From positions 1 through 58,345 of IMG/VR virus record IMGVR_UViG_3300003937_000384: DNA of 58,345 nucleotides; one strand, 5' to 3'. Positions within the stretch are counted from its first letter, which is position 1; each line of letters begins with the position of its first letter. Shown piece by piece: positions 5,441 through 17,606 of this stretch. The notes beneath the pieces were generated by a model that was given only the letters and a program-made list of their open reading frames with translations, did no database searches and was not told the origin of the DNA. The position numbers and the translations under genes were made by a program. Origin of the DNA: a virus.

Positions 5441-6246
5441 CAGAATTGGCGTTGGCCTCATGCTGTTTTTTAGCGGCAGCGCGTTGATAACAGCAACGGC
5501 TGCGAGTAGGTAGAAAGCAGCTCTACACACCCAGGCATCGGCCCCAAGCAACAACATAGCCGACATCGGGAAGAGCGCAACCCCTCGCAACCCAGCTGGA
5601 ACCAATGGCTATCGCACGGAGGTCCGATTAGTTCGCGCCCGGTGACAATCCGGGGCTATCCATCTCCTACGGATAGCGGCCTTAAACCGTGGAGGAATAC
5701 GTCCACATCCGGCAGCATGGCTTCTGCGTCGCGGAGGTTCCAAGGCATGGGTTCCCTAGCTGGCCTTGGATTGTGTGCCCCGTCTCGGGTCGGCCATGTA
5801 TGCGAAGGGCAAGATTGGAGAGCGTCAGGCGACAGCCTGATCACGGGGCAAAGCCCATGGGAGAGACGCCAGTGAATGCTGGTGGCAGGACCCCAGCCCC
5901 GGCGCCATGTCAGGCGTGAACCTGCCGCAGCTGTGTATTGACAGTGATCACAGCGCCGACGATGGTCCTCTGCCTAGGCAAGAGTAGGCCGGCCCGGCAA
6001 AGGTCCCCAGGCTCGCTTATTGCGGGTTGGGGGAGACTTTGCCTCGGTCGGTCGGCGGTTAGAAGCAAAGACCGAGGCAAAACAGCGGGCCCATAGTGTC
6101 CTGAGTCAGCAGGAAGATGTGTCCTGAATCGGGGGCGGAGGTGGCCTTGTCCGTAAAGGAGCACTTGGAGTTCTACAGCAGAAAAACGGAGCGGACCGAA
6201 AATTTCCGGGCGCCGACGAATGTTTTAATGTTCGGTCAAAGGCACA
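5441..6246. other. Gene-poor stretch with weak ORFs and inverted repeats
   Basis: No convincing gene is visible in about 800 bp. Candidates I do not trust include a 68-residue hydrophobic minus-strand frame (5399-5605) that runs into the terminator, a 76-residue plus-strand frame from GTG/ATG near 5689, and a 67-residue plus-strand frame at 6117-6320 that overlaps the next gene. A CTATCC/GGATAG hairpin lies near 5654-5673 and a 12-bp perfect inverted repeat at 6038-6081. The stretch could be decayed cargo. Confidence 0.4.
6038..6081. repeat. 12-bp perfect inverted repeat
   Basis: TTTGCCTCGGTC (6038-6049) and GACCGAGGCAAA (6070-6081) are exact complements around a 20-nt loop. Just downstream, two direct copies of GTGTCCTGA lie near 6097 and 6119. 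The hairpin could terminate transcription in either direction or be the scar of an inserted element; nothing else identifies it. Confidence 0.45.
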
Positions 6247-6657
6247 TCAGATTTGACCCCAAGGAAGGAAGAAGCGTGGTCCTACCTTTAGGCCGCGAAT
6301 TCGAGCTTGCCAGTCACTGATCTGTTTTATGAAGCTATCGACGGGATGCGCCGAGTGCTTACATGCTGCTATGGAATTTAGAAGCTCATTGCTAACTTGC
6401 ATCAAGGAAATTCCGGCGCCCTTGTGCTTGAGAAGGAAGAGCTCGGATGCTATCAGGTGAAGTTCTTCACTCTTATCTGAACTGATGATCTGTGTGTTAC
6501 TGGCATCGCCCATGTAGTTGATTGATCGAATAGCTCGAAGTGCCTCGTATTTCAGCGCATTGAACTTTGAGAGCTTGGCCATCAGCAAGCCCGAGTAGTA
6601 TCCAGCGGCCGTGCCGGGAATCAATGCCATCAGGAGGTCGTAGGCGAGGCTTGTCAT
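6247..6657 (-). CDS. Hypothetical membrane-anchored protein
   Basis: I do not recognise this 136-residue protein. It has an N-terminal hydrophobic segment (MTSLAYDLLMALIPGTAAGYY) and a soluble, mostly helical remainder. ATG 6657 is preferred because AAGGAAG lies about 7 nt upstream of it. The gene follows the XRE regulator on the same strand, about 60 bp away, so the two may be cotranscribed. Confidence 0.55.
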   Translation of the reverse strand: MTSLAYDLLMALIPGTAAGYYSGLLMAKLSKFNALKYEALRAIRSINYMGDASNTQIISSDKSEELHLIASELFLLKHKGAGISLMQVSNELLNSIAACKHSAHPVDSFIKQISDWQARIRGLKVGPRFFLPWGQI

Positions 6658-6719
6658 TAGGGTCTTCCTTGCTGGCACCTAGGCATAGCGTAGGAAGTCG
6701 CTAGGCCGTTCGGTGCGCG

Positions 6720-11096: not shown

Positions 11097-12773
11097 CTAC
11101 GACGCCTTCCTCATCCGACTTGCTGGCGTCGTGGAGTGCGCGCTTTTGGCAAGAGCGACCGCTTTTCGTTCACGTGCAGCTGCATTCACCACCCTCCGCT
11201 TCGCTCTGAGTTGCGCTTGCTTGAGAGACTGCGCTGCCTCTCCAGGCTGATAGGCCGGCAGACCTTCGGGAACGGGGAGAAGCGCTACCGCGTCTGCGCG
11301 CGATTGGAGCGTGGGCACATCTACATAGGTTCCGAGCTCGCCGGGCATATGCGCCTTGTGCCCCGTAATGGCAGCGGCAATAGAGCTAAGCACCCCCGCA
11401 TAGAGAAGCCGGGTGCTCGCAGTATGTCGGAACGAGTGGAAGCCCATGCCGGGCTGCATCATGCCCAAGCCAACAAGATAGGCGCGGAACTGATCTCCGA
11501 GGGCGTCCCCGTAGCCTGCCTTCTTATGCCAAGGCAGGTGGGGAAACAGGCGCTCATGGCCCGACTGCGCTACATCTTCGACGTAAGTTAAGAAGCCCGC
11601 CTCCAACAAGCGTGGGTGGAGTGGGATGAAGCGCAAGGAGTTTGCGTTTTTCAGCTTTTGATCCCGCCGCCCCGCACGAATGTGGATTCCCCAAATGCCA
11701 TTCACCTCGGCCACATCGTCGGCATAGAGTTGCCCAAGCTCGTTGACCCGCGCCCCAGTGCCCGCTGCTAGCAGGACTCCCCAGTATCGATCAGGCCGCT
11801 CCTCTGACCAGGGAAGGAACTTCTCCATATCGAAGAGTTGGTTGATTTCCTCAATGCTGAAGGGGCGACGGGGGAGCGTGGCGATTGCGGTGGCCGAGCT
11901 CTGGCGCTTGATTCCATCGAGCGGCGAACGTGTGAGCAGCCCACCGGCTACTTGTGCATTGAGGAAGCTGGCCAGTCGGTCACGATGTTTGCCTAGAGTC
12001 CGATCAGACAGGCCCGCGATAACGAGCCCTTTGGCGCGTTGTTGCTTGACCTTGGCGATGATTTGCGCGGCGCTCAGTTCTTTGTATTCTGCCTTCTTGC
12101 GCGCATTGCTCGGCCAGTCATGAAGCCCATTTAGGAAGGCGCGCACTTGGGTCTCCCCCACTTGCGACATGAGCAGGTCGAGCCCTGCTATTTCGCGGAA
12201 GATGGTGAGCGTGTTTTCACTGTCGAGCAGATTGCCTGGCGATGTCTTAGCGTTCCTAAGGTCTTCCAGGTAGAGACCAACACGCTTTGTCAGGGTGTCC
12301 CCGGCTCCGGGCAGCGGTGAACTTTGGGCAAAGCCTGAGCTCGCGAGTCCCTTGATGGTGTCCAGCAGAGCTTTGGCGTCCTCGCGTCCATTCACCTGTA
12401 GGTCGGTCAATCTCGCGCCGTTAGGCAGCTCAATGTTCCCGGTCCAGCGGTCAATGGTTCCGGCCAACGCTCTCAGCAGGGCGTCCCGATCCTTCTCGGT
12501 CATTGGGCTACGTCTGATGCGGTCGAATGCCTGAGAGAGTGCCACAGCGGCGCTTGCCGCTGTAAGCCGCATCAGATCGATTGAAGCAGGGGGCAGGCGT
12601 CGCACCAGGTAGCGGGAGCCAATAAGAGGCTGTAGATCCGTAGGCACAAAAAAACGGACGTATAGCCCGCTCGGTCGGCGCAGGAAAAATGGCTTTGGCA
12701 CGGAGTGATACCTACTTTGATACCTGCAGACAGGCTCAGTTCGTGTATCACTCCGATGCCAAAACCCTTGCAA
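11097..12773 (-). CDS. int: Tyrosine integrase of the ssrA island
   Basis: The product is up to 558 residues. It has a DUF6538-like N-terminus (FFLRRPSGLYVRFFVPTDL), a SAM-like core-binding region, and catalytic motifs GARVNELGQL (Arg), SFRHTASTRL (H-x-x-R) and GELGTYVDV (nucleophile Tyr). The C-terminus is a basic helical tail. The TTG at 12773 gives the longest form; GTG 12701 is an attractive alternative because the conserved domain starts right after it. The gene begins about 35-105 bp from the ssrA 3' end and reads into the island, so it should catalyse integration and excision there. Confidence 0.9.
   Translation of the reverse strand: MQGFWHRSDTRTEPVCRYQSRYHSVPKPFFLRRPSGLYVRFFVPTDLQPLIGSRYLVRRLPPASIDLMRLTAASAAVALSQAFDRIRRSPMTEKDRDALLRALAGTIDRWTGNIELPNGARLTDLQVNGREDAKALLDTIKGLASSGFAQSSPLPGAGDTLTKRVGLYLEDLRNAKTSPGNLLDSENTLTIFREIAGLDLLMSQVGETQVRAFLNGLHDWPSNARKKAEYKELSAAQIIAKVKQQRAKGLVIAGLSDRTLGKHRDRLASFLNAQVAGGLLTRSPLDGIKRQSSATAIATLPRRPFSIEEINQLFDMEKFLPWSEERPDRYWGVLLAAGTGARVNELGQLYADDVAEVNGIWGIHIRAGRRDQKLKNANSLRFIPLHPRLLEAGFLTYVEDVAQSGHERLFPHLPWHKKAGYGDALGDQFRAYLVGLGMMQPGMGFHSFRHTASTRLLYAGVLSSIAAAITGHKAHMPGELGTYVDVPTLQSRADAVALLPVPEGLPAYQPGEAAQSLKQAQLRAKRRVVNAAARERKAVALAKSAHSTTPASRMRKAS
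12701..12755. promoter_or_regulatory. Inverted repeat at the integrase start
   Basis: CGGAGTGATAC (12701-12711) and GTATCACTCCG (12745-12755) are exact complements. Between them lies a direct repeat of TGATACCT (at about 12706 and 12719). The block sits over the alternative integrase start and next to the att core. It could hold integrase arm sites or an autoregulatory operator. Confidence 0.45.
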
Positions 12774-12805: not shown

Positions 12806-12824
12806 GTTGGTGGAGGTGGGCGGA
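12806..12824. repeat. Proximal att core in the ssrA 3' end
   Basis: GTTGGTGGAGGTGGGCGGA includes the encoded CCA end and acceptor strand of ssrA (minus strand). It differs by one base from the copy at 318-336. Integration here leaves the tmRNA intact. Confidence 0.7.
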
Positions 12825-13161
12825 ATTGAACCGCCGTCCGAAGGCACTCCATCCCCAGCACTACATGCTTAGCTCACCGTTGGATCTCGTCCCCGAACAG
12901 CACGGTGCGCAAAGCGCATCCGGGAACCAGCCTGTTGTGTTCTAGTGCCGGACTGACAGGCAGCCACCCAGCGCGATTCCATGATAGTGACTCTACACCG
13001 CGAGCATGGACACAAGCGGTTTCGAGGCTTAGGCCTTAAGCGGCCAGAGCGTAGTTGTCGTCGTTGGCAACTAGAGTTTTGCAGCTGGATTTACGAGGAA
13101 AGCTACCCCCTCGGCATGCGCCAGGCGACTTCACAACCCCCGTCGAAACCAATGCACCCCC
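12808..13161 (-). ncRNA. ssrA: Transfer-messenger RNA (tmRNA)
   Basis: The minus-strand RNA is about 354 nt and rescues stalled ribosomes with SmpB. The 5' end GGGGGUG pairs with CACCUCC before the encoded ACCA, forming a 7-bp acceptor stem. The T-arm region reads GGUUCAAUUCC (complement of 12823-12833). The tag frame at 13036-13068 encodes ANDDNYALAA followed by stop. The 5' segment also has the usual UUCGACG motif. The 3' end is the island attachment site. Confidence 0.95.
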
Positions 13162-13169
13162 GGTTTCTT

Positions 13170-13196
13170 CAAGTATTGCAAGGCTTTTGGGGTCAA
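13170..13196 (-). promoter_or_regulatory. Probable ssrA promoter
   Basis: On the minus strand TTGACC (13196-13191) and TACTTG (13175-13170) are separated by 15 bp, with the first G of tmRNA 9 nt beyond the -10. Spacing is short, so the exact hexamers are uncertain, but position relative to the RNA 5' end fits. Confidence 0.5.
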
Positions 13197-13358
13197 TGCT
13201 GGCAAAAAGCTGGCACTAACCCTGCCCAACGAGCCGAATAGTACGGCAATCTTCCTGAACAGTCACGCGGCAAGTCATTCCTGTTCATCTTCACTTGCTG
13301 AACAATCGCAGCGTATGCGACGCTCTGGCCGGACGCTTAAGGGGCAAGGAGCTCCGGC

Positions 13359-14192
13359 ATGTCGGTCACGCAATTGCTGGGACCAAGCAGCTACCTGTCT
13401 TACCTTGGTAAGGCGGGTGACGGCTGTGACGCCAACACGCACAAGGCGAGGGTGGAGTTTGAGCCTGGCACGCCAGTCGATGCCTATGTGAAGGTTTATG
13501 ACGAAGGTGACGCGCCCAAGGGTCTCGTCAACGAACTCATCGGCTACGTCTTGGCGAAGCATGCTGACATCGATGTGCCGGTGCGATCCGCGATCATGTT
13601 GTTGTCGAATGCCCAGACGGGCTACCTGCCTGATGGGTTCAGGCCGATGAAGGACGCGAGCGGCAGCGTCGTGGCGTGGTGCGTCGAGGACGTTGGCGGC
13701 AACACTCCAAAGCAGGCCTTTAGATGGAAAGAAGAGCAGGGGCTAGAGGCACTTCGTGATGACCTAAAGAAGTGGCAGAAGCTGGTTGATGTGGTTGCAC
13801 TGGATGCTTGGGTACTCAATGAGGATCGGAATCTCGGAAACCTCGTCCGCATGGCGCCAGGGAAATATGCTGTTATTGATCACGGCCGGGTCTGTACGGG
13901 GAACGCGTGGGCTGTTCCTTTGGATAGAGCTCGGGTGAGTCACACGAATAAGCTGGCTCTCGCCGCTTGGGACTCTCATAACGTCGAGCAGGCCCCTGCG
14001 AAAGTCAGATCCGGAGTTCTCAGCGCATTTGAGGCTCATGCAACCGTTCTCGCCAAGGCGGATCTCGACTTGTTGGAGTGGCTGCCCCGTCTTGTGGAGG
14101 GCCTAGAGGAACAAGACGTGAAGGATTTCCTGCAGCAGCGCGCAACTTCCGTCCCGAAACACTACAAGACAGCATTCCAGGTGCTGCTATGA
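13359..14192 (+). CDS. HipA-like serine/threonine kinase
   Basis: The 277-residue protein resembles the short HipA-type kinases. Visible features are a candidate ATP-binding Lys in YVKVY (Lys45), Glu59 (NEL), the catalytic loop D149...N154EDRNLGN161 and the metal-binding IDHG (173-176). It lacks the N-terminal half of full-length HipA (about 440 residues) and no HipB-like antitoxin is adjacent. AGGAG lies 8 nt before the ATG. Its stop overlaps the next start (ATGA), so it heads a coupled three-gene cassette. A kinase effector or sensor in defence or persistence is inferred. Confidence 0.75.
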   Translation: MSVTQLLGPSSYLSYLGKAGDGCDANTHKARVEFEPGTPVDAYVKVYDEGDAPKGLVNELIGYVLAKHADIDVPVRSAIMLLSNAQTGYLPDGFRPMKDASGSVVAWCVEDVGGNTPKQAFRWKEEQGLEALRDDLKKWQKLVDVVALDAWVLNEDRNLGNLVRMAPGKYAVIDHGRVCTGNAWAVPLDRARVSHTNKLALAAWDSHNVEQAPAKVRSGVLSAFEAHATVLAKADLDLLEWLPRLVEGLEEQDVKDFLQQRATSVPKHYKTAFQVLL

Positions 14193-15040
14193 ATCTGACA
14201 AGTCTACTCAGGACGTCCAATTCGAGTGCTGGCCAGGCCGTTGAAGGCGTGTGGCAGAACATTCGCTGGCTGCCTGATGCGGCCACAGGTGAAGTATTGA
14301 ACCTTGGCGTCCGGTTCAGGGCAGGCACTGGACAGAGCATAGTGCGCCTGATCGACTCATTCGATAGGGTCAAATGTCTTTATGACGCCAGCGTGGCAAG
14401 CGATGCGGAGTTTCTCGTGAGGGTCGTCGGTGACGCGTTGGCGGCTGGATTCGAGATACCAGCAACTGGCATCTTCCTCAGCGAGGAAAAGTATGCCTCC
14501 GGAACCAACGCCCGTGCAGTTGTCGATGACCTTTTTTTCCGAACCGTTCCGCTGGCCCGCCCGCGCGCGGACGCAGAGCGCGGCGGCAAGGGGCTGAAGA
14601 CGGAGCCGAATGACGCCATCAGAAGTGTCGTCTTTGACGAGCTACGGCGCATCTCAGGACTTCGCGCTGAGTCCATCATCCGCGGGGAGAACCAATTCGA
14701 GGTTAGGGAGCCCGGGAAGACTCACTACCTAGATATTCCACTCCAGTCCAATCGGGCGCTCGGTACGATCGTCTCGGCAAGGTTCGCCAAAAGGAAGGAT
14801 GCCGAGCTAAGGCTCTTGCGCGCAGACAACGATCTGCAGATTGCAAAGCGTGTCTACCAAGGAGATCGGATGCTGATGTACGTGGTTCGACATGATTCAG
14901 GAGCTGCAGCAGCCGAGCGGTTTGATGAGCTGCTGGATGATTTCTCATGGAAATTCAGTAGGGTCGGAGTAGAAATGAAGAGCTACTCTGATCCTCTGCT
15001 GGTTGCCGAAGACGTCGTCACTGATATGTTGGCCGCCTAG
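14189..15040 (+). CDS. DUF3037-like protein of the HipA cassette
   Basis: The 283-residue product has an N-terminal segment (VWQNIRWLPDAATGEVLNLG) resembling the start of DUF3037 proteins, which often neighbour short HipA kinases. The rest is mixed alpha/beta without motifs I know. It overlaps the kinase stop by 4 bp and is followed 12 bp later by the third gene. It may be the partner, target or antitoxin of the kinase; the sequence alone does not say which. Confidence 0.6.
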   Translation: MNLTSLLRTSNSSAGQAVEGVWQNIRWLPDAATGEVLNLGVRFRAGTGQSIVRLIDSFDRVKCLYDASVASDAEFLVRVVGDALAAGFEIPATGIFLSEEKYASGTNARAVVDDLFFRTVPLARPRADAERGGKGLKTEPNDAIRSVVFDELRRISGLRAESIIRGENQFEVREPGKTHYLDIPLQSNRALGTIVSARFAKRKDAELRLLRADNDLQIAKRVYQGDRMLMYVVRHDSGAAAAERFDELLDDFSWKFSRVGVEMKSYSDPLLVAEDVVTDMLAA

Positions 15041-15052
15041 GAGGAGCTCGGT

Positions 15053-15751
15053 TTGGACGGACAGCTAGACAGCGAACCTGATGCACCCACTGAGGACTTG
15101 GGTGAGTTTGGGGGTTCGGGCTGGTATCGACGGACCAGAGCAGATCTCTATGCTGCCGCGACGCACCTATTCGCCTTTCAGCGGGAAAGGGAATGCGAGC
15201 GCTACTTTCTCTTAGCGGCGATCCGTAGGACGCTCTCCCTGGAGATGGCGTTCCGCCAAGCTGTTGACTCGAAGAACGGTCAAATGGCTATGACCATTGT
15301 CAGGTTGAATCTTGATACCTTGGCCAGGACATACGCACTTTACTGGGCCGAGCAGACTCCCGGTCTGACGGCGGAAGAGTTTGCCAGGCGTGTCGCATCG
15401 GGTGTGAGTATCAAGGATATGAAGCTTCGTGGGGCAAAGGAAAAGGCTAGCGATCGATGGCTGATAGATCAGATTAAGCCCTTGGCAGATTGGATCCCGG
15501 ATGTCTATCGACGAACATCGGGTGCCATCCATTTCTCTGAATTTCACATCGCGCAGATGCTCCAGCAGTCCAAAAAAAAGGGTGCGGAAGGGGACGGTTC
15601 CGTCCTCATAAGGCTGGCTCTTGGGCCGACCGATGAAGTGCGAAGCCCGACCCGTTACCGCGAGGTTTCCCAAGCCTTTCTCCACATTACGATGATGTTG
15701 ATCGCACTGCTAAAGCACAGGTGTGAGCTAGCCCATCTTGCCAGGCAGTAA
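15053..15751 (+). CDS. Third cassette gene with an HEPN-like motif
   Basis: The 232-residue protein is almost all helix and resembles DUF5677-type proteins. YRRTSGAIH (152-160) gives R-x5/6-H, the spacing of HEPN ribonuclease active sites. Conserved-looking polar residues occur in the preceding helices. It starts at TTG 15053 with AGGAGG at 15040-15045. Its last 24 bp overlap the convergent integrase end. If the HEPN reading is right, this would be an RNase effector; the motif is short, so chance remains possible. Confidence 0.55.
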   Translation: MDGQLDSEPDAPTEDLGEFGGSGWYRRTRADLYAAATHLFAFQRERECERYFLLAAIRRTLSLEMAFRQAVDSKNGQMAMTIVRLNLDTLARTYALYWAEQTPGLTAEEFARRVASGVSIKDMKLRGAKEKASDRWLIDQIKPLADWIPDVYRRTSGAIHFSEFHIAQMLQQSKKKGAEGDGSVLIRLALGPTDEVRSPTRYREVSQAFLHITMMLIALLKHRCELAHLARQ

Positions 15752-16897
15752 GGTCCAGACGGCCGCGGCCTTCGCACCAGCATCGGGGACCATCGACGGG
15801 ATCCACCGGCCGTACTTCTTCGCGGTGATCGTCCAGTCGCGGTGCCCCATCTGCCTCGCGACCCACATGACGTTCTCGCCGGCGCTGAGCGCCTGGGAAG
15901 CGAAGGTGTGGCGCATCTGATACGGGTAGCGATACCTGACCCCAGCCTTGCGCAGTGCGCGCTGCCATTCGCCGGCGCGGATGCTCTGATCCGACCCCCA
16001 CCGCGCATTCGTCCTGGGATCATGGAAGACGAACTCGCCGGCGGTGGCGGTATGGGCACGCTGGGCCTTCAGGGCATCGATCGCTGGTTGCAGCAGCTGC
16101 ACCTCGCGCACGCCGGACTCTGTCTTGGGTGCCTTCATCTTGCCCATGACCCAGGCACGCCGGATCTTGACCGTTCCCTTGCGCCAGTCGATGTCCGACC
16201 AGCAGAGGCCGATCATTTCCGAGGTGCGCAGGCCCGTGGCGAAGTTGAACTGGCAGTAGTTGCGGACCTGGTCCTCGCGGCAGGCGGCCAGGATTGCCTG
16301 GACTTCCTCCGGCGTGAAGGGATCGACCTCTTCGCGCGCATTGGCCTTGGCACGCCGCTTCACCCTGAACCCGTCGAGGGGATTGCTGGGGATCAAGTCG
16401 TCGGCCACGGCCTCATCCAGCGCACCGCGGAGCGGGCCCAGGACGTTGTTGATGCGCTTCGCCGACGTCGACTCGTCGAACGTGGCTACCAGCTCCTTCA
16501 GCGCGATACGGTCGAAGTCACGCAGCGCGATCGCTCCGCAGCGCGGCACCAGGATGTTCTCGACGATGCGCCGGTAGCCGATCAGGCTGCTGTGCTCGAG
16601 CTCGGGCTCTTTCTGCGCCAGCCACCGGGTCAGCACCTGCTCCAGGTTGTCCAGGGCTGCAGGGCGGGTGGCGACCTGACGGGCACGCTTGCTGTTGGGA
16701 AAGTGGGTGGCGTAGTCGAACGTGCCTTTCTCGATCTCGATCTTGATCTGCCCCAGCAGGTTTTCGCAGTACCGCAGATTTCGTGCGGTTGGGGGCAGTT
16801 TCAGCCGTTCGCGACAGCGCTTGCCGCGGTAGTGAAAGGTTATCTCGATGCTGCCTTGTGAAACTGGCCTGACGCCGCTCTGCCTTGGACTACCCAC
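15728..16897 (-). CDS. int: Prophage tyrosine integrase
   Basis: The 389-residue protein begins with a DUF3596-type arm-binding domain (IEITFHYRGKRCRERL), a core-binding domain, and the catalytic set GLRTSEMIGL (Arg), YQMRHTFAS (H-x-x-R), GHRDW and KKYGRW (Tyr). It marks the left end of the large prophage. I prefer GTG 16897; a TTG at 16969 is also open. Its start overlaps the excisionase gene. The att site was not identified. Confidence 0.9.
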   Translation of the reverse strand: MGSPRQSGVRPVSQGSIEITFHYRGKRCRERLKLPPTARNLRYCENLLGQIKIEIEKGTFDYATHFPNSKRARQVATRPAALDNLEQVLTRWLAQKEPELEHSSLIGYRRIVENILVPRCGAIALRDFDRIALKELVATFDESTSAKRINNVLGPLRGALDEAVADDLIPSNPLDGFRVKRRAKANAREEVDPFTPEEVQAILAACREDQVRNYCQFNFATGLRTSEMIGLCWSDIDWRKGTVKIRRAWVMGKMKAPKTESGVREVQLLQPAIDALKAQRAHTATAGEFVFHDPRTNARWGSDQSIRAGEWQRALRKAGVRYRYPYQMRHTFASQALSAGENVMWVARQMGHRDWTITAKKYGRWIPSMVPDAGAKAAAVWTLLPGKMG

Positions 16898-17118
16898 TCT
16901 TCGTACCCCTCCAAATCGATCAGGTTTCTTCCATCTGGCGCCTTGATGAACACCGCGCCCTCCAGCCAATCGCCGCGCTTGATCTTCGAGTTGACCGCGT
17001 CGACCGTGTAGCCGGTCAGCGCCTCAAACTGCTTGAGCGTGACGAATCGGACCGGGCGCAGGTTCGCGGGGGATGCGGTCCTCGACAATCCTCGTGACGA
17101 GGATCCGTAGCTACTCAT
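16840..17118 (-). CDS. xis: Excisionase-like protein
   Basis: The 92-residue product contains a compact winged-helix region: VRFVTLKQFEALTGYT, KIKRGDWLEGAVF, then NLIDLEGYEEWV. This is the pattern of Xis-type recombination directionality factors. It overlaps the integrase start by 58 bp if GTG 16897 is used, and the upstream gene by 8 bp. It should bind near the att site and favour excision. Confidence 0.75.
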   Translation of the reverse strand: MSSYGSSSRGLSRTASPANLRPVRFVTLKQFEALTGYTVDAVNSKIKRGDWLEGAVFIKAPDGRNLIDLEGYEEWVVQGRAASGQFHKAASR

Positions 17119-17341
17119 GGGACACCGCCTGCAGGCTCCAGAGGACCGACGGGCGCTCGTCGGGACCGTGGAAGGGCGCGCGCTGCACGCGGCCGGTCTT
17201 GGCCAGTTGGTGCAGGTAGCTGCTGACCCGGTTCGAAGGCAGCTGCAGCTCGGCGGCCAGCTCGCCGGCCAGGCCCGGCCCCTCCTGCAGCAGCTGCAGG
17301 ATCCGGGTAGCGGTGCCGTCAGCAGTGCCTGCATCAGCCAT
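17111..17341 (-). CDS. Small winged-helix DNA-binding protein
   Basis: The 76-residue product reads as a winged helix: ATRILQLLQEGPGLAGELAA, SNRVSSYLHQLAKTGRVQRA, then a wing. This layout fits ArsR/MarR-like or phage early regulators. It overlaps neighbours on both sides by 8 bp in the leftward operon. Its target is unknown; control of int/xis is possible from position. Confidence 0.65.
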   Translation of the reverse strand: MADAGTADGTATRILQLLQEGPGLAGELAAELQLPSNRVSSYLHQLAKTGRVQRAPFHGPDERPSVLWSLQAVSHE

Positions 17342-17606
17342 GGTCTGCCTCAGCTGCTCCTGGGTGGCCCGGGCACCCGGTACCGCTGTAGTCGAAGCCT
17401 TCGCAGACCGGTCCGAGCGGGATGACCCTACGGCCGTTGGCCAGGTGGTCGGTCAGCACCCGGCGGGCTTCGGCTGCAGTTACCGGCTCTCCGGACGGGC
17501 TGCGCTGGAAGAGCCCTTTCAGCTCGCGGCCGGTCATATTGATCAGCGCGCCGGCGACGTCCAGGTGCAGGTGGTAGCGCACGGGAAGGCGGTCAGAAGT
17601 GTTCAT
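17334..17606 (-). CDS. Hypothetical phage early protein
   Basis: I do not recognise this 90-residue protein. It is soluble, with two cysteines near the C-terminus (VCEGFDYSGTGCPG). It overlaps the upstream gene by ATGA (17603-17606) and the downstream gene by 8 bp. The coupling supports that it is translated. Confidence 0.55.
   Translation of the reverse strand: MNTSDRLPVRYHLHLDVAGALINMTGRELKGLFQRSPSGEPVTAAEARRVLTDHLANGRRVIPLGPVCEGFDYSGTGCPGHPGAAEADHG

What the first reader, a model, noticed from the sequence alone, without database searches (positions are those of the whole stretch)
13359..15751. Candidate new three-gene system: HipA-like kinase, DUF3037-like, HEPN-like
Seen: three tightly coupled genes (4-bp overlap, 12-bp gap) at the edge of a prophage. 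The first has kinase loop and metal motifs, and the third has R-x5/6-H in a helical protein. Known: HipA kinases and HEPN RNases are recurring toxins in defence systems, and short HipA kinases often neighbour DUF3037 proteins. Inference: a kinase-regulated RNase system giving abortive infection or prophage protection.
Basis: partly seen in the sequence, partly recalled or inferred. Interest (0 to 1): 0.75.

Follow-up and report, generated by a model that had tools for sequence, protein, structure and literature searches.

The report
Prophage HipAD pair plus unrelated gene
A bacterial virus sleeping in its host's genome carries, next to its integration gene, a likely copy of an already described two-gene kinase toxin-antitoxin defence pair (HipAD) and, right behind it, a separate wandering gene of unknown function; the three do not look like a new conserved system.

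Summary
The three genes and their spacing are real and lie inside a prophage, between its left end (about 13,273) and its integrase. They are best read as two modules, not one system.

Genes 1-2 (kinase, DUF3037-like) recur side by side in 13 of 13 further kinase loci examined. They match the architecture of the published HipAD/DS-6 and PADLOC PDC-M66 pair: a HipA-like kinase toxin restrained by a DUF3037 protein, with reported anti-phage activity. None of the 13 has gene 3.

Gene 3 belongs to a separate family, distantly matching Pfam DUF5677. In 17 other loci examined it occurs without the kinase: prophages, plasmids, other contigs and, in two genomes, integron-like arrays. A sister prophage (86% identical kinase and gene 2) lacks exactly gene 3. 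Two surveys (398 and 395 genomes) found no genome with both.

The HEPN-RNase reading of gene 3 is unproven. The R-x5/6-H arginine is absent from 11 of 18 relatives; the conserved motif is Y-x3-[SC]-x3-H-x-S. Solved HEPN domains are among the structural matches, but unrelated helical bundles score as high.

Verdict: a probable new member of a known kind (HipAD-type) beside an independently acquired, uncharacterised gene.

The parts
13359..14192 (+). HipA-like kinase (277 aa), putative toxin/effector of a HipAD-type pair
   Evidence: phrog_11186 E 6.5e-37; HipA_2 sub-threshold, 16 of 27 bits; 5 of 10 family rows match HipA_2 at E<=0.001 and 4 of 10 match PDC-M66A at E<=0.1; catalytic residues unvarying in 14 rows
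14189..15040 (+). DUF3037-like partner (283 aa), putative antitoxin
   Evidence: phrog_14695 E 2.1e-27; PDC-M66B E 0.014; 2 of 9 rows match DUF3037 at E<=0.1, best 3.9e-4; 3 of 9 match PDC-M66B, best 2.8e-7; follows the kinase in 13 of 13 other loci by position, 11 of 13 also by profile, 3 of these 11 being in the profile's seed
15053..15751 (+). Independent cargo gene (232 aa), DUF5677-like all-helical protein, function unknown
   Evidence: no match of its own in Pfam, PADLOC, NCBIfam or PHROGs at E<=1; 4 of 10 family rows match DUF5677, best E 1.2e-6; model pLDDT 78; kinase or gene 2 found in 0 of 17 other loci
15728..16969 (-). Phage tyrosine integrase converging on gene 3, 24-bp overlap
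   Evidence: phrog_1 integrase E 1.6e-64
13250..13273 (.). Left junction of prophage and host, with CTGAACAGTCAC shared by window, sister prophage and host
   Evidence: host match ends at 13273; alignments
12808..13161 (-). Host tmRNA gene left of the prophage end

Best explanation
Two independent cargo modules sit side by side in the slot between the prophage's left end and its integrase. Module 1 (13359-15040) is a HipAD-type pair: a short HipA-like kinase, toxic when free, held in check by the DUF3037-like protein of the overlapping gene. On infection by another phage the restraint is probably lost and the kinase stops growth of the infected cell, protecting the lysogen population and the resident prophage (toxin and antitoxin roles are reported in print for relatives; the trigger and the substrate are inferred or unknown). 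Module 2 (15053-15751) is a DUF5677-like helical protein that is found by itself on prophages, plasmids and in integron-like arrays. It was either gained at the gene 2/integrase junction or lost from the sister prophage (order not known). It may be a single-gene defence factor, but nothing here shows that.
For: Pair: the kinase is followed directly by a partner ORF in 13 of 13 further loci; 8 of the 9 plasmid records with the kinase also hold gene 2, most of them near-identical small plasmids. Published pair: passages on HipAD/DS-6 and the Retron-Sda1 section, where deleting the kinase abolished Bas51 defence and deleting DUF3037 was toxic. Gene 3 separate: 0 of 13 pair loci and 0 of 17 gene-3 loci have the other module; no genome with both among 398 (9 kinase, 4 gene 3) and 395 (2 kinase, 5 gene 3). 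Sister prophage L005 aligns over 12808-15038 and 15755-17351 and lacks the stretch between. Gene 3 relatives L027 and L028 stand without the pair, convergent to an ORF that I read by eye as another integrase. Gene 3 relatives in G479 and G292 lie in arrays of attC-like repeats. Cargo G+C is 55-57% against 64-65% for integrase and portal.
Against: P0001 is below Pfam's HipA_2 cutoff and P0002 has no direct DUF3037 match, so the HipAD assignment runs through relatives at 19-48% identity. Kinase rows also match other models (PDC-M03A in up to 3 of 10, PI3_PI4_kinase in 2 of 10). DUF1829, which DS-6B is said to carry, was not seen in P0002 or in the other 8 gene-2 rows at E<=0.1. The 12-bp gap and shared strand make co-transcription of gene 3 with the pair likely, so functional coupling in this one prophage cannot be excluded. 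In G654 a gene-3 relative overlaps a RES-like ORF by 4 bp, so gene 3 may sometimes work with a toxin-like partner. The kinase model failed (pLDDT 36), so its fold was not tested. The loci sampled are few and their flanks differ in length.
Confidence: 0.77

Rival explanations
1. A true three-gene system: the HipA-like kinase phosphorylates or otherwise controls a HEPN-like RNase (gene 3), with the DUF3037-like protein as sensor or antitoxin, giving abortive infection.
For: Same strand, 4-bp overlap and 12-bp gap; all-helical model, with a solved HEPN domain protein (4nqf) aligning at Z 8.7, rmsd 3.0 A over 127 residues, sacsin HEPN at Z 7.4 and 3.4 A, and Roquin ROQ chains at Z 7.8-8.0 and 3.3-3.4 A (that Roquin holds a HEPN-type domain is recalled).
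Against: No second example: 0 of 13 pair loci, 0 of 17 gene-3 loci, no genome with both in two surveys. The sister prophage has the pair without gene 3. An arginine 5-7 residues before His160 is present in only 7 of 18 rows.
Confidence: 0.08
2. Gene 3 is a mobile add-on that works with different toxin-like neighbours (HipAD here, a RES-like protein in G654), for example as an accessory or immunity factor.
For: In G654 gene 3 overlaps by 4 bp a 366-aa ORF that looks RES-like by eye; in the window it trails the pair.
Against: 6 of 17 loci have no same-strand ORF of 80 aa or more within 60 bp; in the other 11 the neighbouring ORFs differ from locus to locus and were not tested as genes. In G479 gene 3 lies between two attC-like sites. 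The RES label is recalled, not tested by profile; a PDB sequence search gave nothing.
Confidence: 0.12
3. The pair is an addiction or persistence module of the HipBA/HipBST kind rather than an anti-phage device.
For: Toxin-antitoxin modules, hipBA among them, are tied to genetic stability and antibiotic tolerance (PMC8262856, abstract and outline seen); relatives lie on small plasmids.
Against: None of the three proteins matched a HipB or HipS model. The DUF3037 pairing is the one reported as anti-phage. Addiction and defence do not exclude each other.
Confidence: 0.15

Closest known systems
HipAD / DS-6 (PMC13092281, passages read; first report cited there as Brenes and Laub 2025, not held) and PADLOC PDC-M66
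   Same: HipA-like kinase gene followed directly by a DUF3037-type gene; conserved kinase residues; mobile-element setting here and, judging by the cited title only, in the first report
   Different: Low sequence similarity (sub-threshold to HipA_2 and to the PDC-M66 models); no DUF1829 match seen in gene 2; followed here by gene 3
Retron-Sda1 HipA/DUF3037 pair (PMC12548924, section 10 read)
   Same: Same two-gene kinase/DUF3037 architecture; there the kinase acts as toxin and the DUF3037 protein neutralises it
   Different: There it stands beside a retron RT and ncRNA; a retron was not searched for here
Pfam DUF5677 (for gene 3)
   Same: 4 of 10 gene-3 family rows match at E<=1, best 1.2e-6
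   Different: P0003 itself does not match; one paper in the library names the family (listing seen only)
HEPN RNases (for gene 3)
   Same: All-helical, with a conserved His at a helix end; 4nqf and sacsin HEPN are among the structural matches with the lowest rmsd
   Different: No conserved R-x4-6-H; unrelated helical bundles reach equal or higher Z

Membership tests
HipAD / PDC-M66 pair | HipA-like kinase gene directly followed by a DUF3037-type gene | tested here: met
   4-bp overlap; same order in 13 of 13 further loci, partner recognised by profile in 11 of 13, of which 3 seeded the profile. That gene 2 is DUF3037-type rests on the row on DUF3037 / PDC-M66B
HipAD / PDC-M66 pair | Kinase matches HipA_2 / PDC-M66A | tested here: inconclusive
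   P0001: HipA_2 16 of 27 bits, no PDC-M66A match. Relatives: L008 33.9 bits against a cutoff of 27; 5 of 10 rows HipA_2 at E<=0.001; 4 of 10 rows PDC-M66A at E<=0.1, best 8e-9
HipAD / PDC-M66 pair | Kinase catalytic residues present | tested here: met
   E59, D156, N161, D174 in 14 of 14 rows, K45 in 13 of 13
HipAD / PDC-M66 pair | Second protein matches DUF3037 / PDC-M66B | tested here: inconclusive
   P0002: PDC-M66B E 0.014, no DUF3037 match. Relative L051 gene 2: DUF3037 20.7 of 22.6 bits and PDC-M66B E 2.9e-4
HipAD / PDC-M66 pair | Anti-phage activity, kinase toxicity, neutralisation by the partner | not testable with these tools
   Reported for relatives in PMC12548924 and PMC13092281
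HEPN ribonuclease (gene 3) | Conserved R-x4-6-H motif | tested here: not met
   His160 in 18 of 18 rows, but Arg 5, 6 or 7 residues before it in 7 of 18
HEPN ribonuclease (gene 3) | HEPN fold | tested here: inconclusive
   Model pLDDT 78, but about 51-53 over residues 161-200; 4nqf_B Z 8.7 at 3.0 A, 3o10_D Z 7.4 at 3.4 A, against 7-helix proteins up to Z 9.5 at 4.2 A; best Foldseek E 0.35
Pfam DUF5677 (gene 3) | Profile match | tested here: inconclusive
   No match for P0003; 4 of 10 family rows at E<=1, best 1.2e-6
Three-gene defence system as proposed | Conserved three-gene neighbourhood | tested here: not met
   0 of 13 other pair loci and 0 of 17 other gene-3 loci; no genome with both among 398 and among 395

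The most novel reading that the evidence does not exclude
Gene 3 is a new type of single-gene anti-phage effector that travels by prophage, plasmid and integron cassette. In this prophage it has been recruited into one transcript with a HipAD-type kinase/antitoxin pair, so that the kinase and the DUF5677-like effector act as a layered, co-regulated response.
Probability: 0.1. Interest if true: 0.6.

Novelty: new member of a known kind. Interest (0 to 1): 0.3.

Why it matters
It adds a distant, prophage-borne candidate member to the recently described HipAD/PDC-M66 pair, one that the curated models score below threshold. It also singles out a separate, travelling DUF5677-like gene family (prophage int slots, plasmids, integron-like arrays) with a sharp conserved motif, a reasonable candidate for a stand-alone defence test. 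And it corrects a tempting but unsupported three-gene reading.

Tried and rejected
Three-gene operon: rejected because no second example was found in the loci and genomes examined. HEPN RNase for gene 3: not adopted, because the Arg of R-x4-6-H is not conserved and the structural matches do not stand above other helical bundles; the rhodopsin- and GPCR-like matches are read as a common helix arrangement, not kinship. The AlphaFold model of the kinase from 3 sequences failed (pLDDT 35.8) and no fold search was made with it. PDB sequence searches gave no credible relatives: no match for the kinase and gene-2 families at E<=0.1, none for P0003 alone at E<=1, and only weak matches, among them designed proteins and CDK12, for the gene-3 family (best E 0.034) and for P0001 (best E 0.037). 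Viral-contig scans with L008, L051 and L007 kinases found no relatives. No gene-3 relative was found among annotated phage records and no DNA match of the cassette there. Rfam had no match in four gene-3 loci. Promoter and terminator scans found nothing above shuffles. A strict attC scan found no site near gene 3 in any of 18 loci, window included; a relaxed one, tuned after seeing the repeats, found sites within 250 bp in 2 of 17 (L063 on both sides, L050 on one).

Dropped before counts: marginal kinase matches in G122 and G091 (E 5e-5 and 8e-4, stops inside; they are in the 9 of 398 but not in the 13 loci) and a marginal gene-3 match in G614 (E 6.6e-4; in the 5 of 395 but not in the 17 loci). 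The 4 of 398 for gene 3 include the centre genome G001. Not fetched: second Sinorhizobium plasmid H4, second Moraxella phage H2, and 8 of the 9 plasmid kinase records. L034 was found with gene 2, not with the kinase.

Full report
Observation. The three ORFs are real and as tightly packed as stated: kinase 13359-14192, gene 2 14189-15040 (4-bp overlap), gene 3 15053-15751 (12-bp gap), all on the + strand. The window is a virus record of 58,345 bases. To the left lies a tmRNA gene, 12808-13161 on the - strand. To the right a phage integrase, 15728-16969(-), runs toward gene 3; terminase and portal genes lie further right. I read about 13,273 as the left end of the prophage, so the three genes are prophage cargo between the end of the element and its integrase. 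Their G+C is 54.9-57.2%, against 64.3% for the integrase and 64.9% for the portal gene.

Genes 1 and 2. The kinase matches phrog_11186 (6.5e-37) and gene 2 phrog_14695 (2.1e-27), both of unknown function. Direct Pfam and PADLOC evidence is thin: HipA_2 at 16 of 27 bits for the kinase and PDC-M66B at E 0.014 for gene 2. Relatives narrow the gap. Of 10 kinase rows, 5 match HipA_2 at E<=0.001 and 4 match PDC-M66A at E<=0.1; some rows also match PI3_PI4_kinase (2 of 10) or PDC-M03A models (up to 3 of 10). Of 9 gene-2 rows, 2 match DUF3037 and 3 match PDC-M66B at E<=0.1. The kinase of L008 passes the HipA_2 cutoff (33.9 bits). In 14 aligned kinases E59, D149, D156, R157, N161 and D174 do not vary, nor does K45 in the 13 rows that reach it. 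D156 (in NEDRNLGN) and D174 (in IDHG) fit the catalytic loop and the metal-binding Asp of protein kinases; that mapping is by analogy, recalled.

The pair is a unit. In 13 further loci (L005, L007, L008, L034, L041-L047, L058, L059) the kinase is followed directly by an ORF of about 280-315 aa. In 11 of 13 the gene-2 profile recognises it (L005, L007 and L008 seeded that profile); in L042 and L045 only position and size do. In plasmids, 9 records hold the kinase and 8 of these 9 hold gene 2. In print this architecture is HipAD/DS-6: PMC13092281, passages and part 1 of its reference list, reports anti-phage protection and loss of defence when a predicted catalytic kinase residue is changed. It cites as first report a paper titled 'E. 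[quoted passage not shown] PMC12548924 (passages, section 10 read) finds such pairs called PDC-M66 by PADLOC, likens them to DS-6, and reports that kinase deletion abolished defence against Bas51 while deletion of the DUF3037 gene was toxic. That supports kinase = toxin, DUF3037 protein = antitoxin. Phage trigger and kinase substrate were not given in the passages I read.

Gene 3. P0003 has no match of its own in Pfam, PADLOC, NCBIfam or PHROGs at E<=1. Relatives were found by scans and tblastn and by genome searches. I examined 17 distinct loci besides the window: viral or prophage contigs (L004, L027, L028, L030, L031), plasmids (L009-L011) and chromosomal or unassigned contigs (L002, L003, L048-L050, L060-L063). 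None carries the kinase or gene 2 within the DNA held, flank sizes differing and some ending close to gene 3, as in L003. In L027 and L028 (66 and 64% identical) gene 3 ends 12 bases from a convergent ORF that I read by eye as an integrase of another type, so the same kind of slot appears to be used without HipAD. In 398 genomes of the phylum of G001 (Celeribacter) 9 had the kinase (query phrog_11186) and 4 gene 3; in 395 genomes of the family of G306, 2 had the kinase (query P0001) and 5 gene 3; no genome was in both lists. At such low frequencies chance overlap would be near zero, so this shows lack of obligate linkage, not avoidance.

The sister prophage L005 is the cleanest single test. 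It aligns with the window over 12808-15038 (81% DNA identity) and 15755-17351 (89%), with kinase and gene 2 at 86% protein identity, and lacks the stretch 15039-15754, that is gene 3 and its immediate borders. Gain here or loss there cannot be told from two records.

Integron-like arrays. In G479 (L063) gene 3 lies between two attC-like hairpin repeats (5929-5988 and 6605-6716) in a run of 13 such sites in 12.6 kb (1.03 per kb). Ten pair loci used as a control gave 13 in 115 kb (0.11 per kb). In G292 (L050; 7 sites, 0.56 per kb) one called site abuts gene 3, and a similar repeat is visible by eye on the other side. In the other 15 of 17 loci no site was called within 250 bp; in G178 and G581 direct repeats lie around or near the gene but did not pass the scan. 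The relaxed scan was tuned after the repeats were seen, and the strict one found no site near gene 3 in any of 18 loci, so the contrast is illustrative. It suggests that gene 3 can travel as a one-gene cassette.

HEPN question. Among 18 aligned rows R59, N75, R84, D88, R92, G117, D134, L137, Y152, H160, S162 and F209 do not vary, whereas an Arg 5, 6 or 7 residues before H160 is found in only 7 of 18. The conserved motif is thus Y-x3-[SC]-x3-H-x-S, not R-x5/6-H. Four of 10 family rows match DUF5677 at E<=1 (best 1.2e-6) and one matches DUF6988 at E 0.021, among other chance-level matches. DUF6988 is among the domains that DefensePredictor newly implicates in defence, but a single weak match carries little weight. 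The model (pLDDT 78, weaker over residues 161-200) aligns to HEPN domains 4nqf_B (Z 8.7, 3.0 A, 127 residues) and 3o10_D (Z 7.4, 3.4 A, 123 residues), and to Roquin ROQ chains (Z 7.8-8.0, 3.3-3.4 A), at rmsd values below those of most other rows; but seven-helix proteins reach Z 9.5 at 4.2 A, and Foldseek's best E is 0.35. HEPN-like is possible; an active HEPN RNase is not shown.

Reading. The locus is a prophage cargo slot holding a HipAD-type defence pair and an unrelated, independently mobile gene. Shown: gene order, motif conservation, pair conservation, absence of the triplet elsewhere in the loci examined, sister prophage without gene 3. Inferred: defence function of this pair (from relatives), co-transcription of gene 3 (from spacing), and any role of gene 3.

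Noticed in passing
L063:3441-9905 and L050:3938-11498: Relatives of gene 3 lie inside runs of attC-like repeats, i.e. probable chromosomal integron cassette arrays.
   Followed up: partly
L062:6564-7664: In G654 a gene-3 relative overlaps by 4 bp a 366-aa ORF that looks by eye like a HEPN/RES N-terminal plus RES toxin; the label is recalled, not tested by profile.
   Followed up: partly
window 11097-12773: A second integrase on the - strand (phrog_1, 5.7e-27) abuts the 3' end of the tmRNA gene, so two different elements appear to flank a host stretch of about 470 bases holding tmRNA.
   Followed up: partly
L034:2621-4876: In a metagenomic viral contig the pair follows and overlaps an HTH, repressor-like ORF (read by eye), which may couple the pair to phage control.
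   Followed up: no
L007:3459-5592: Moraxella phage Mcat22 carries the kinase/gene 2 pair, annotated as hypothetical proteins, after a 139-aa ORF.
   Followed up: no
L002:5908-6663: The Celeribacter relative of gene 3 has an in-frame stop near its start and may be a pseudogene or start later.
   Followed up: no
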